The notes beneath the pieces were generated by a model. That model did no database searches. It had not been told where the DNA came from and worked only from the letters and a program-made list of their open reading frames with translations. A stretch of 64,000 nucleotides of DNA from Chloroflexota bacterium. Its GTDB lineage: Bacteria; Chloroflexota; Anaerolineae; Aggregatilineales; J027. Position 1 is the first letter of the stretch; the number at the start of each line of letters is the position of its first letter. The stretch spans positions 62,001 through 126,000 of the forward strand of contig JABFGB010000009.1 of assembly GCA_013112715.1 (NCBI GenBank), written 5' to 3'. Below are positions 39,255 to 43,829 of this stretch, one piece after another. Made by a program: the position numbers and the translations under genes.

Positions 39255-40121
39255 GTGGACAAAACAACAACATCGCAGCTACTCATTGACCTACATATGC
39301 ACAGTACAGCCTCCGACGGTGTGTTTTCGCCATCGGAGGTTGTTCATACCGCGATTACATGTGGCCTGCACGTTATCGCCCTCACCGACCACGACACTAC
39401 CAACGGCGTGATGGCAGCACAGACCGCCGCTAGTCAAACCCCGCTCCAAGTCATTCCCGGCATTGAAATGGGCTGTGAGGATGCTCTCCGCACCATTGAC
39501 ATTTTGGGCTACTTCATTGACACCGAAAATGAAGACTTTCAGCATCAATTGACTGACATCCGCACCTATCGAGAACGACGGGCCGAACTCATTGTTGAGA
39601 AATTGGCGCGGCTGGGGGTCAATATCTCATTGGAGCGCGTCTACGCGATTTCCGAAGGTGCGGCTATTACTCGCCCGCATATTGCCCGTGTTATGGTTGA
39701 AAAAGGCATCGTGCCTGATAGCCAGACGGCCTTTAATCACTATCTTGCGAATGATGCCCCTGCCTACGTGCCGCGTTTCCGACTGACCATTCCCGAAGCC
39801 ATTGCCATGATTCATCAGGCAGGTGGGGCAGCAGTCTTGGCGCACCCCGGACGTTATGCCAGCCCCACCAAAATCATTGGCGAAGCGATTGCAGCAGGTG
39901 TGGATGGCCTCGAAGTCTATTATCCCGACCATGCCCCTGAATTCCGCCAGCAGTTGCTCAAAACCATCACCGAAAATGGCTTGATTGCGACAGGGGGCAG
40001 TGATTTCCACCACCCCGAAAATGGGACGATTCGTATGGGCGTCGAAGCCACCAACATGCCCGCCGACACCCTGATAAAACTCCGCGAACGCGCCACTCGC
40101 TACCAATCTACAGGTTTTTAA
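39255..40121 (+). CDS. PHP-domain phosphoesterase (RNase AM / TrpH-like)
   Basis: 288 residues from a GTG at 39255. Metal ligands of the PHP fold are visible: IDLHMHSTASDG (His-x-His), ALTDHDTTNG (Asp-His), a central EMGCED, then VLAHPGRYAS and TGGSDFHHPENG (Asp-x-His). The layout is that of the YciV/TrpH family. In E. coli the member is RNase AM, a 5'-3' exonuclease acting on RNA ends, and others hydrolyse nucleotide phosphates. It begins five bases after the SpoVS-like stop, so the two are coexpressed. It ends near a GC-rich repeat fragment. Confidence 0.9.
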   Translation: MDKTTTSQLLIDLHMHSTASDGVFSPSEVVHTAITCGLHVIALTDHDTTNGVMAAQTAASQTPLQVIPGIEMGCEDALRTIDILGYFIDTENEDFQHQLTDIRTYRERRAELIVEKLARLGVNISLERVYAISEGAAITRPHIARVMVEKGIVPDSQTAFNHYLANDAPAYVPRFRLTIPEAIAMIHQAGGAAVLAHPGRYASPTKIIGEAIAAGVDGLEVYYPDHAPEFRQQLLKTITENGLIATGGSDFHHPENGTIRMGVEATNMPADTLIKLRERATRYQSTGF

Positions 40122-40136
40122 GCCGCGCCCTGTGCA

Positions 40137-40155
40137 TGGGGAAGGGGTGGGGATG
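40137..40155 (+). repeat. Partial copy C of the dispersed GC-rich repeat
   Basis: TGGGGAAGGGGTGGGGATG matches the right half of copy A (TGGGGAAGGGTCGGGGATG) at 17 of 19 bases. It lies 15 bases past the PHP stop. The left half is absent. Confidence 0.4.
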
Positions 40156-40244
40156 ATTCCCTCAATTTTCCCTCACACTCTTTTCGTGTAAAATATCTGA
40201 ATACTTGTTCTGTTAATTTCAAGCAAGCTATCTCAGGATCATTC

Positions 40245-43097
40245 ATGACCGACTACAACCGTGAACAAAACCTCCAAGCCTTTGTGACATGGTGGCAGCA
40301 GTTTGGCAAAGGCGACGAAAAAGGCCAAGCCCAAATTTTCCTAGACCGCCTGTTTAAAGCCTTTGGACATGCGGGAGTTCAAGAGGCGGGGGGTGTCCTT
40401 GAAGACCGTATCCTCAAAAAACGGGGCACCAAAACCACCACCGCCTTTGCCGATTTGGTGGTGCCGGGGCGTGTCTTGTTTGAAATGAAAAAACGCGGTG
40501 AAGACCTCCGCAAACATTATCAACAAGCCTTTGAATATTGGCTCTACCTTGTCCCTAATCGCCCTACCTATGTCGTCCTCTGCAATTTTGACGAATTTTG
40601 GGTGTTCGATTTCAACCGCCAACTCGAAATCCCGATGGACAAGGTGAAAATCGAGGATTTACCCCAGCGTTGGGGGCCACTAGCTTTCCTGTTCCCCAGT
40701 CAAGAGCGCCCCACCTTCAGCAAAGAAAACGACTTGGTAGCAGTTACTGAAGAGGCAGCCCAACGCCTCTCCCAAATTTTTACCAAACTGCTCAAACGGG
40801 TAGAGCGTCCGAAAGCGCAGCGCTTTGTCCTCCAATGTATGTTGGCCCTTTTTGCCGAAGACATTGGCCTCCTGCCGCGCTATCTCTTTACTCAAATTAT
40901 TGAAGATTGTCAAAATGGGGCGGAATCTTCCGAGCTATTTTATTTGCTCTTTTTAGCCATGAACCAACCCAGCGGCATCCCTAGCCCACGTTTTCACAAG
41001 GTCGCCTACTTCGACGGTGGCCTTTTTTCCGAAATTCACCCCATTGCCCTGCAAAAAGATGAACTAAACCTTCTATGGGATGCCACTCAGATGAATTGGG
41101 GCAAAATCCGTCCGGCCATCTTTGGCACCATCTTTGAAAAAAGCATGGAATCCAAAGAACGCCGCGCTACCGGAGCGCAATACACCTCCGAAGTAGACAT
41201 CCAGCGTATCATTCAGCCCGTCATTGTTCGCCCTTGGCGACAGCGCATCGAAGCCGCCCATACCGTTGATGAACTGCGCCAACTTCAACAGGAACTTAGC
41301 CATTATCAAGTTCTCGACCCCGCCTGTGGGTCTGGCAATTTTCTCTATCTGGCCTACCGCGAAATGAAACGCCTCGAACACGACATTCTCGCCCATATCG
41401 CCGAACAAACCGGCTCACCCCAACTCGAAATGGGGCTTGTCAATGCCCAGCAGTTTTGGGGCTTCGACATCAATCCCTTTGCCGTTGAATTGGCAAAAGT
41501 CAGCCTCATGATCGGTAAAAAACTGGCGGTAGATGAACTCGGTCTCCCCGAAAAAGTCCTGCCGTTAGACAATCTCGATAACAACCTGCGTGCTGCCGAT
41601 GCGATTACCACCGCATGGCCTAAGTTTGATGCTTGTATCGGGAATCCACCCTATTCAGGCACGGCTCTCTCAAAAGATGCTGAAGCAATAAAACGCTTGA
41701 ATGATGCCCGCGAAGCCTATCCTGACGTTCCCAAGAAAGCGGATTACTGTGCTTATTGGTTCCGCAAAGCCCATGAGTTGATGCCGCTTGGTGCAAGGGC
41801 GGGGTTAGTAGCGACCAATAGCATCCGACAGAACAATTCCCGTATTGGAAGCCTTGATTATATTGTGAGCGACGAGGGTCATATATATGAGGCTGTATCT
41901 TCTATGGCATGGTCAGGTGAAGCCAAAGTCCACGTTTCGGTAGCTTGTTGGAGCAAGGGTCAACCACCATTTCCCACAAGACGGTTGTGGATAGACGGAG
42001 GCAATAGCTATATTGAGCAAGCGACGATTAACAGCAGCCTTTCAACAAAAGTGGACGTAAAAGGCGCAAAAACACTCCCTCCCAATAAAGCACCTAAACG
42101 CACATTTCAGGGCCAGACTCCGGGGGAAGATGGATTCATAATCCCGCTCGAACAGGCCCAAAAGTGGATTAAAACCAACCTTCATAACCGCGAAGTGATC
42201 TTTTCCTATATGACGGGAGACGATTTACTCGGCAACCTGCGAGCCTTACCTAACCGCTATATCGTAGATTTTGGGGATCGCGATGTCATTGAATCCCGCA
42301 GATACAAAACCCCTTTCCACCATATAGAAAATACCGTTTTACCCGTGCGTCAGCATAAGGCCAAAGAAGAGGCAAATAAAAATGCCGAAGTTCTAAAAGA
42401 CGACCCCGATGCGGAAATAAACCGCGACCATGAAAATGCCTTGAAAAAATGGTGGCTTCACTTCCGCAGTCGTTCGGATATGAACAAAGCGATCCAAAAG
42501 TTGCCGCGTAGCATTGTATGTTCCCGTGTTACCAAACGCCCTGTTTTTGAGTTTGTTGGTAAAGGCTTTTGTTTCGGCGATTCCCTGCAAGTCTTTGCTT
42601 TTGCCGACGACTACAGTTTTGGCATTCTGCAATCCAATCCGCATTGGGCATGGTTCACAGCGAAGAGTTCAACACTTACAGAACGTTTCCGTTATACCCC
42701 AAGCAGCGTTTTTGATACCTTCCCATGGCCCCAAAATCCGACTATTGCCCAAATCCAAGCCGTTGCCGCCGCCGCCCGTCAACTCCATGAATATCGCCGC
42801 GCCCAACTCAATCGCACAGAAAGTCGCCTAACCCTGCGCGATATGTACGCCTCATTAGAACTTCCCGGCAAAAATCCTTTGCGTGACTTGCACACCGCCC
42901 TAGATGCTGCTGTCATCGCCGCCTATGGCTTTGACCCCAACGCCGATTTGCTGGCCCAACTTCTAGCCCTCAATTTCCAAGTCGCTGCCAAAATCGAGGC
43001 TGGGGAGTCGGTTACAGCGCCCGGCATCCCCGCCCATTTTCCCAATCCCGATACCCTCATCTCTTCCGGCTGCATTCTCCCCCCTGAACTGCTCTAA
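40245..43097 (+). CDS. MmeI-like single-polypeptide restriction-modification enzyme
   Basis: 950 residues, close to the 919 of MmeI (type IIL/IIG). The N-terminal nuclease domain has FADLVVPGRVLFEMKK: Asp70, then nine residues, then Glu80-x-Lys82, the PD-(D/E)xK arrangement of MmeI. A helical spacer follows, then a gamma-type adenine methyltransferase: LDPACGSGNFLYLAY (motif I, about 357) and IGNPPYSG (motif IV, NPPY at about 467). The last 450 residues are the target-recognition and C-terminal helical domains. One protein should both cut and methylate DNA, so no separate subunits are expected. The recognition site cannot be read. Confidence 0.9.
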   Translation: MTDYNREQNLQAFVTWWQQFGKGDEKGQAQIFLDRLFKAFGHAGVQEAGGVLEDRILKKRGTKTTTAFADLVVPGRVLFEMKKRGEDLRKHYQQAFEYWLYLVPNRPTYVVLCNFDEFWVFDFNRQLEIPMDKVKIEDLPQRWGPLAFLFPSQERPTFSKENDLVAVTEEAAQRLSQIFTKLLKRVERPKAQRFVLQCMLALFAEDIGLLPRYLFTQIIEDCQNGAESSELFYLLFLAMNQPSGIPSPRFHKVAYFDGGLFSEIHPIALQKDELNLLWDATQMNWGKIRPAIFGTIFEKSMESKERRATGAQYTSEVDIQRIIQPVIVRPWRQRIEAAHTVDELRQLQQELSHYQVLDPACGSGNFLYLAYREMKRLEHDILAHIAEQTGSPQLEMGLVNAQQFWGFDINPFAVELAKVSLMIGKKLAVDELGLPEKVLPLDNLDNNLRAADAITTAWPKFDACIGNPPYSGTALSKDAEAIKRLNDAREAYPDVPKKADYCAYWFRKAHELMPLGARAGLVATNSIRQNNSRIGSLDYIVSDEGHIYEAVSSMAWSGEAKVHVSVACWSKGQPPFPTRRLWIDGGNSYIEQATINSSLSTKVDVKGAKTLPPNKAPKRTFQGQTPGEDGFIIPLEQAQKWIKTNLHNREVIFSYMTGDDLLGNLRALPNRYIVDFGDRDVIESRRYKTPFHHIENTVLPVRQHKAKEEANKNAEVLKDDPDAEINRDHENALKKWWLHFRSRSDMNKAIQKLPRSIVCSRVTKRPVFEFVGKGFCFGDSLQVFAFADDYSFGILQSNPHWAWFTAKSSTLTERFRYTPSSVFDTFPWPQNPTIAQIQAVAAAARQLHEYRRAQLNRTESRLTLRDMYASLELPGKNPLRDLHTALDAAVIAAYGFDPNADLLAQLLALNFQVAAKIEAGESVTAPGIPAHFPNPDTLISSGCILPPELL

Positions 43098-43141
43098 GGC
43101 TTCATTGCGGGGGGAGTTTGGGGTCACACCTTATATCTACA

Positions 43142-43251
43142 ATTAAGAACATATATTCTATAATCTGCATTCATATAAGCCAGAGGTGAAATCCGTAACC
43201 GTGGTTACGAAGTTGGCCTCTCACTTATATAATTAGAAATTATGTTCTAAT
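43142..43251. repeat. Large imperfect palindrome between convergent genes
   Basis: About 110 bases centred near 43201. The centre is GTAACC-GT-GGTTAC (43195-43208). Middle arms are ATATAAGCCAGAGG (43173-43186) and CCTCTCACTTATAT (43217-43230), 12 of 14 matching. Outer arms ATTAAGAACATATATTCTAT (from 43142) and the complement of 43232-43251 also match with small gaps. It fills the gap between the MmeI-like enzyme and the NADAR gene. It could be a MITE-like element, a cruciform site or a bidirectional terminator. Confidence 0.7.
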
Positions 43252-43709
43252 CAACTCTCGCCTTGTGAGTCCTGCAAATGGCTTCGCACGGCCATTAAAA
43301 TTTGCCCTAATTTGTTTTGCCCGTTGCCACTCCGACCCGCTCCCCAATAATAATCGGTGGGGGCATTCTCAATAAGTTCCTCATCGCCTGTCGCCAAGAG
43401 CTTGTCGCGCAGGCTGGCATGGGTCTGGAATTTTTTCAAAACGGCCTGCCACATGATTTCATCTTTCACGGCTTCCCAGTCGGCCCGAATCGGATGTTCG
43501 CGGCTGCGCCCCAATGTCTTGGCCTGTTTAGGAGATTTTGCCAGTCGGATTTTTTCGGCATAGGGCGGATCCGTCTCCACAAATTTCTGCGCCTGAAAAT
43601 AATGCTCCACCGTCGGCCAATAGACTCCATCCAACTCAAAACCATGCGCCGAAAAATTGGACAGATAAGCGTATTCATCCGTATTGGAATAAAAATAAAT
43701 CGGCATCAT
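43251..43709 (-). CDS. NADAR family protein
   Basis: 152 residues from the ATG at 43709, where GGGAGATG supports the start; the open frame further upstream is probably not translated. The motifs are YFYSNTDEYAYLSNFS, WPTVEHYFQAQKF (catalytic Glu region), IRADWEAVKDEIMWQAVLKK and YYWGAGRSGNGQNKLGQIL with the ending LMAVR, all as in the NADAR/YbiA family. Members act on ADP-ribose or N-glycosidic bonds, and some remove ADP-ribose from guanine in DNA, countering DarT toxins. No DarT is adjacent. It converges with the MmeI-like gene across the large palindrome. Confidence 0.92.
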   Translation of the reverse strand: MMPIYFYSNTDEYAYLSNFSAHGFELDGVYWPTVEHYFQAQKFVETDPPYAEKIRLAKSPKQAKTLGRSREHPIRADWEAVKDEIMWQAVLKKFQTHASLRDKLLATGDEELIENAPTDYYWGAGRSGNGQNKLGQILMAVRSHLQDSQGES

Positions 43710-43829
43710 CTCCCTTTGTCCCTTTCCGAAATTTGTCTTTCTGAAAGTTTTACCCCGCGTTATAGTATAAGTGTTTAGGTGTAAGCCGCTTCCCATTTTG
43801 AAAAGTTAAATATTCCCCAAAAAGGTCTT

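What the first reader, a model, noticed from the sequence alone, without database searches (positions are those of the whole stretch)
43142..43251. Roughly 110-base imperfect palindrome between an MmeI-like enzyme and a NADAR gene
Seen: nested inverted repeats around a perfect core GTAACC-GT-GGTTAC, 12/14 matching middle arms and AT-rich outer arms. It is larger than an ordinary terminator and exactly fills the convergent gap. It may be a MITE-like element, a cruciform target of the R-M enzyme, or a bidirectional terminator.
Basis: partly seen in the sequence, partly recalled or inferred. Interest (0 to 1): 0.65.

Follow-up and report, generated by a model that had tools for sequence, protein, structure and literature searches.

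The report
Genus-wide modular palindromic intergenic repeat
The palindrome is one copy of a previously unlisted, roughly 135-base repeat that sits between genes at tens of places in every sampled species of one uncultured Chloroflexota genus; its fixed blocks are kept by natural selection, while its central hairpin is a hot spot for sequence change and for insertion of jumping genes.

Summary
The palindrome at 43142-43251 is real and is the best in the window (32 of 55 ungapped pairs, next best 28). It is not a terminator and has nothing to do with the MmeI-like gene. It belongs to a dispersed family: 20 exact cores in this genome (control 1) and 10-35 in four congeneric species, but only chance numbers in 36 genomes of other genera. 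The usual copy is about 135 bp with rigid spacing: TACCACA, TAACGGCCA, ATATAA, the core CGTAAC-N4-GTTACG, ATATAA, TAGAAC-N4-GTTCTA, with TA at both ends. The window copy carries the right-hand arm on both sides, which is why it looks like one long palindrome. Copies are intergenic, show no orientation preference, and are mostly inherited at the same place. Between orthologs the fixed blocks differ by 5% and the spacers by 36%, so the blocks are under selection in situ. The four central bases differ by 54%. Arms are swapped between copies, and at least two kinds of transposable element have inserted into the core. Best reading: an old MITE- or BOX-like repeat kept as a DNA-level protein-binding site, with a recombination-prone palindromic core. 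The bound protein is unknown.

The parts
43144..43250 (.). Whole repeat copy: R-arm (inverted) + palindromic core + R-arm. It is a variant of the usual L-arm + core + R-arm.
43145..43160 (.). Left outer box AAGAACATATATTCTA (degenerate form of TAGAAC-N4-GTTCTA)
   Evidence: aligned with the R box of other copies
43173..43178 (.). Left ATATAA block
43194..43209 (.). Core palindrome CGTAAC-CGTG-GTTACG; arms nearly invariant across the family
43200..43203 (.). Core centre (4 nt): hypervariable between orthologs; position of transposable-element insertions in other copies
43227..43232 (.). Right ATATAA block (0 of 240 mismatches between orthologs elsewhere in the family)
43234..43249 (.). Right outer box TAGAAATTATGTTCTA, ends 1 base before the NADAR ORF end
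40245..43097 (+). MmeI-like type II restriction-modification gene, convergent neighbour; absent at this place from four congeners, so it arrived separately from the repeat
43251..43796 (-). NADAR-domain gene, convergent neighbour

Best explanation
The palindrome is one copy of an ancestral, genus-specific family of small modular intergenic repeats (about 135 bp), probably MITE-like in origin and now kept by the host. Shown: many copies, rigid spacing, intergenic position without orientation preference, inheritance at orthologous places, strong conservation of the blocks against the spacers, a palindromic core whose arms are constant and whose centre changes fast, arm swapping between copies, and insertion of at least two kinds of transposable element at the core. 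Inferred: the blocks are binding sites for one or more host proteins acting at DNA level (the core bound by a dimer or read as a cruciform), and the core is a place of breakage and copy-repair between repeats. That would explain the hypervariable centre, the arm swaps and the insertions. The window copy has a right-hand arm on both sides of the core, which gives the unusually long palindrome.
For: Dispersed family; exact core 20 copies against control 1; 10, 11, 35 and 27 in four congeners and 0-2 in 36 other genomes; model R1 finds 29-74 matches per congener and essentially none in other genera. Same copy at the same place in congener L090 without the MmeI gene. Orthologous copies at most sites. 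Selection: mismatch 5% at fixed positions, 24% at partial, 36% at spacers over 40 ortholog pairs; with the consensus taken only from this genome and tested only on the other species, 5.6% against 33%, 23 of 23 pairs, Wilcoxon p 2e-7. Core centre 54% mismatch against 4.6% for core arms. Clearest paired covariation in the core, columns 71-80 A-T 57 / T-A 11 with no mismatch, the T-A form only in one species. Orientation of neighbours: 12 --, 11 ++, 10 divergent, 6 convergent. Mosaic arms: 11 of 40 pairs differ significantly between outer left and right halves, in both directions. Core insertions.
Against: No protein has been shown to bind and no transcript data exist. The neighbouring genes have no common theme. 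Selection could act on RNA rather than DNA, although the family consensus fold is only the 6-8 bp core hairpin. Ortholog pairs share species and are not fully independent. Breakage and copy-repair at the core is inferred from patterns, not observed.
Confidence: 0.6

Rival explanations
1. A still mobile MITE: the outer boxes are transposon ends, TA is the target site, and a transposase in trans moves it; block conservation reflects only recent spread.
For: TA at both ends of the consensus, as in ERIC, RUP and Correia elements (PMC2229807). In G002 three IS-bearing copies share an identical 56-bp R-arm that ends exactly at the R box with different flanks beyond.
Against: Nearly all copies checked are shared between species at the same place. 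No clean gain was seen, only losses of whole intergenic stretches. Spacers of orthologs are already 36% different while blocks stay, so the copies are old. No transposase with these ends was found.
Confidence: 0.15
2. A portable divergent promoter: GTTAC as -35-like and ATATAA as -10-like on both sides of the core, with the GAAC-N4-GTTC box as a LexA-type operator.
For: Symmetric spacing of about 16-17 bp from TTACG to TATAAN on both sides (from the consensus). LexA-like genes of this genome have CAGAACAAAAGTTCTG upstream. The window copy contains TATAAT.
Against: No preference for gene starts or orientation. Promoter scan barely above shuffles. Neighbouring genes have no SOS theme. Stand-alone boxes are not enriched (24 against control 20).
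Confidence: 0.1
3. Non-coding RNA or mRNA-stability element acting through its hairpin when transcribed.
For: Window copy folds strongly; core shows compensatory changes.
Against: The family as a whole folds only at the core (mean z -1.7); the conserved blocks do not pair; no Rfam match; random orientation to genes.
Confidence: 0.08
4. Bidirectional transcription terminator of the MmeI-like and NADAR genes.
For: Convergent gap and strong hairpin at this place.
Against: Core only 6-8 bp in the family, no T run, only 6 of 39 loci convergent; terminator scan finds none at the element.
Confidence: 0.04
5. Target or cruciform substrate of the neighbouring MmeI-like restriction-modification enzyme.
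For: Adjacency only.
Against: Element present at the same place without the gene in L090 and in tens of copies elsewhere; the MmeI gene is a lineage-specific insertion.
Confidence: 0.01

Closest known systems
ERIC / IRU / RU-1 elements (enterobacteria, 127 bp)
   Same: Size, multiple intergenic copies, lineage-restricted, TA at ends (PMC2229807); palindromic and largely old copies (from general knowledge)
   Different: Sequence unrelated; here modular arms with different boxes, arm swapping and a hypervariable core centre; selection on boxes shown against spacers
BOX elements of streptococci (boxA/B/C modules)
   Same: Composite repeat built from modules, interspersed, nearly restricted to a few related species (PMC3049150)
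   Different: No tandem B-type module; a palindromic core joins the arms; the pneumococcal authors concluded parasitic, whereas here the blocks are under selection
CIR elements of Caulobacter and relatives (about 110 bp)
   Same: Intergenic, two arms, conserved protein-recognition motif, no clear TIR, TA at ends (PMC2229807)
   Different: No fixed GANTC motif in the consensus; boxes unrelated; limited to one Chloroflexota genus
REP palindromes as targets of insertion sequences
   Same: Palindromic repeats serve as insertion targets for specific ISs (PMC1525189)
   Different: 135 bp with several fixed boxes instead of 20-40 bp; in G002 the inner arms travelled with the IS

Membership tests
MITE-like small repeats (ERIC/RUP type) | Under 200 bp, non-coding, multicopy, dispersed | tested here: met
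MITE-like small repeats (ERIC/RUP type) | TA dinucleotide at both termini | tested here: met
   columns 3-4 and 130-131 nearly invariant TA
MITE-like small repeats (ERIC/RUP type) | Terminal inverted repeats | tested here: not met
   canonical ends TACCACA and (reverse complement) TAGAACA share only TAnnACA; only R-core-R variants such as the window copy have inverted ends
MITE-like small repeats (ERIC/RUP type) | Target-site duplication at empty/filled sites | tested here: inconclusive
   no clean gain found, only whole-gap losses
MITE-like small repeats (ERIC/RUP type) | Partner transposase with the same ends | tested here: inconclusive
   IS-bearing forms in G002 share the R-arm but the IS body is not in the assembly
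BOX-type modular repeats | Interchangeable modules in different combinations | tested here: met
   L+core+R, R+core+R (window), L + CAAGTG-type module; mosaic ortholog pairs
REP / RAYT | 20-40 bp palindrome | tested here: not met
   fixed 135-bp architecture with several boxes
REP / RAYT | Associated RAYT (REP-associated tyrosine) transposase | not tested
   no search for the Y1 transposase family was run
Intrinsic (bidirectional) terminator | GC-rich stem followed by T run, placed at 3' ends | tested here: not met
Rfam RNA families | Match to a covariance model | tested here: not met
   only two tRNAs in the window
LexA (SOS) operator | R box equals the LexA site and is bound by LexA | not testable with these tools
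   similar GAAC-N4-GTTC sites upstream of LexA-like genes are only suggestive

The most novel reading that the evidence does not exclude
The core is a homing site: an IS-bearing form of the repeat spreads into resident IS-free copies by breakage at the palindromic core and copy-repair, carrying along the inner left arm and the right arm, while the host keeps the boxes of the IS-free copies for a chromosome-level function. In G002, three loci share an identical 29-bp inner left arm and three share an identical 56-bp right arm next to the same IS ends, with different outer flanks. One of these loci has an IS-free element in four other species.
Probability: 0.2. Interest if true: 0.75.

Novelty: new variant of a known kind. 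Interest (0 to 1): 0.5.

Why it matters
Small intergenic repeats are usually read as parasitic leftovers. Here five congeneric genomes make it possible to separate blocks from spacers within single copies, and the blocks are held by selection regardless of neighbouring genes. That points to a chromosome-level DNA function and gives a directly testable bait for an unknown protein. The family also offers a natural case of a palindrome acting as a hot spot for recombination and transposon insertion.

Tried and rejected
Rfam: nothing at the element. Viral contigs scan with the core pattern: 34 hits, about the number expected by chance by my own estimate, dropped. Stand-alone GAAC-N4-GTTC boxes: not enriched. 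Orientation relative to GC skew: weak, and marginal after masking the element, not claimed. Insertions enriched at element edges: a few cases (window, L178, L299) but no systematic pattern. Clean empty sites: none. Pfam on the short IS peptides: no family. MAFFT on divergent copies misplaced the variants, so only canonical copies entered the model.

Full report
Observation. An ungapped count of complementary bases around every centre of the 64 kb ranks this centre first, 32 of 55 pairs, next 28. RNA folding of the surrounding stretch beats all 200 shuffles on both strands.

A dispersed family. A search of the window's own genome (5.55 Mb) gave 30 matches at about twenty places. Reading them showed one shared design with almost rigid spacing: TACCACA, about 12 bases, TAACGGCCA, about 15 bases, ATATAA, CATAAAT, core CGTAAC-N4-GTTACG, AATTC, ATATAA, about 10 bases, TAGAAC-N4-GTTCTA. 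I call the two sides of the core the L-arm and the R-arm. The window copy carries an R-arm on each side of the core, so it is palindromic over its whole length. The family as a whole is palindromic only at the core: the consensus fold of 43 independent copies is a 6-8 bp hairpin, mean z of single copies -1.7, against -6.0 for the window copy.

Distribution. The exact core occurs 20 times here (control pattern 1), 10, 11, 35 and 27 times in four other species of the genus, and 0-2 times (chance level) in 36 other genomes of the family and order. A sequence-only model of ten canonical copies found 41, 29, 59, 74 and 50 matches in the five congeneric genomes (some places counted on both strands), none in four genomes of other genera and one marginal match (E 0.08) in a fifth. 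Named relatives are Anaerolineae/Chloroflexi MAGs, among them CFX5.

This locus. The repeat is therefore most likely older than the arrival of the MmeI-like gene, and the restriction-modification link is adjacency only.

Placement. Ninety-three regions from the five genomes were fetched and searched, giving 68 full copies. In 39 independent loci, neighbouring genes relative to the repeat are -- 12, ++ 11, divergent 10, convergent 6. This argues against a general terminator or gene-directed promoter role. Nearest genes are unrelated in function.

Age and selection. Most copies have an orthologous copy in other species. Over 40 ortholog pairs the fixed positions differ by 5%, partly fixed ones by 24% and spacers by 36%; non-orthologous copies differ by 9, 52 and 69%. 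To remove circularity, the consensus was taken from this genome alone and tested on pairs among the other four: 5.6% against 33%, in 23 of 23 pairs, p 2e-7 (pairs share loci and are not fully independent). Old, inactive insertions would not show this. The R-side ATATAA had 0 mismatches in 240 comparisons.

Core. The clearest paired covariation is in the core: columns 71-80 are A-T in 57 copies and T-A in 11 with no mismatched intermediate; all eleven T-A copies are in G002, at loci that are A-T in other species where an ortholog was available. Other high-scoring column pairs are mostly neighbouring positions of R-arm subtypes and do not form base pairs across the core. The four central bases differ in 54% of ortholog comparisons, more than the spacers, while the core arms differ in 4.6%. 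The central dinucleotide is always purine-pyrimidine.

Arm swapping and insertions. In 11 of 40 ortholog pairs the outer left part and the right arm differ significantly in divergence, in both directions, as expected if arms are replaced as blocks. In G001 two copies carry a ~140-bp MITE exactly in the core centre, in opposite orientations. In G002, three contig ends stop inside an IS-like sequence joined to CGTAAC with an identical 29-bp inner left arm, and three more stop inside what looks like the other end of it, joined to an identical 56-bp right arm that ends exactly at the R box. The flanks of one left and one right end (C51, C6) match the two sides of the locus that holds an intact repeat in four other species. 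So the IS entered a resident repeat, and the inner arms came with it. I infer co-conversion or a composite unit; the tools cannot separate these. A second IS variant sits in another core (C42). REP palindromes are known targets of ISs (PMC1525189).

Interpretation. Shown: a selected, modular, genus-restricted intergenic repeat with a variable palindromic centre. Inferred: DNA-level binding by host protein(s), and breakage and repair at the core. The R box resembles sites upstream of this genome's LexA-like genes, but stand-alone boxes are not enriched, so a LexA role is only a lead.

Comparison. ERIC, RUP, BOX and CIR elements (PMC2229807, PMC3049150) are the closest kinds. Size, dispersal, intergenic place and TA ends agree; terminal inverted repeats do not (canonical copy), and target-site duplication could not be tested. 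I therefore file it as a new variant of small bacterial intergenic repeats, not as a proven MITE.

Noticed in passing
L216:8690-8840 and L217:8800-8960 (G001): A ~140-bp MITE with TGTTGAAAAAGTC ends inserted exactly in the core of two repeat copies, in opposite orientations, next to TGCC.
   Followed up: partly
L348, L349, L351, L350, L372, L373 (G002 contig ends): IS-like ends TAATGCRCTTTAACAA...TACGG joined to the repeat core; inner left arm (29 bp) and right arm (56 bp) identical at three loci each while outer flanks differ; homing-like co-conversion. One locus is IS-free in four other species.
   Followed up: partly
L352:16-120, L356:2100-2200, L357:2090-2190, L359:2070-2170, L167:4740-4840: The L-arm is also found joined to another module containing CACTTGACAAGTGCATACCGTTTCAC instead of the core and R-arm.
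   Followed up: no
window 40102-43272: The MmeI-like gene and adjoining sequence are absent from four congeners at this place; lineage-specific insertion between a PHP-domain-like gene and the NADAR gene.
   Followed up: partly
L180, L178, L183, L195 flanks: A second short repeat, AGATTCAGCACGGCGGCTTTAGCCCCGTGT or close to it, recurs beside several copies.
   Followed up: no
L169 and L207: Repeat plus about 70-80 bp of flank on each side is essentially identical between two species whose surrounding 10 kb is 92% identical.
   Followed up: no
L345-L347: Three LexA-like genes; upstream sites CAGAACAGAGGTTCGG and CAGAACAAAAGTTCTG suggest a GAAC-N4-GTTC operator in this genus.
   Followed up: partly
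43 independent copies, flanking 4-16 kb: Slight negative GC skew on the canonical strand of the repeat (mean -0.017 after masking, 28 of 43), hinting at a replication polarity; marginal.
   Followed up: partly
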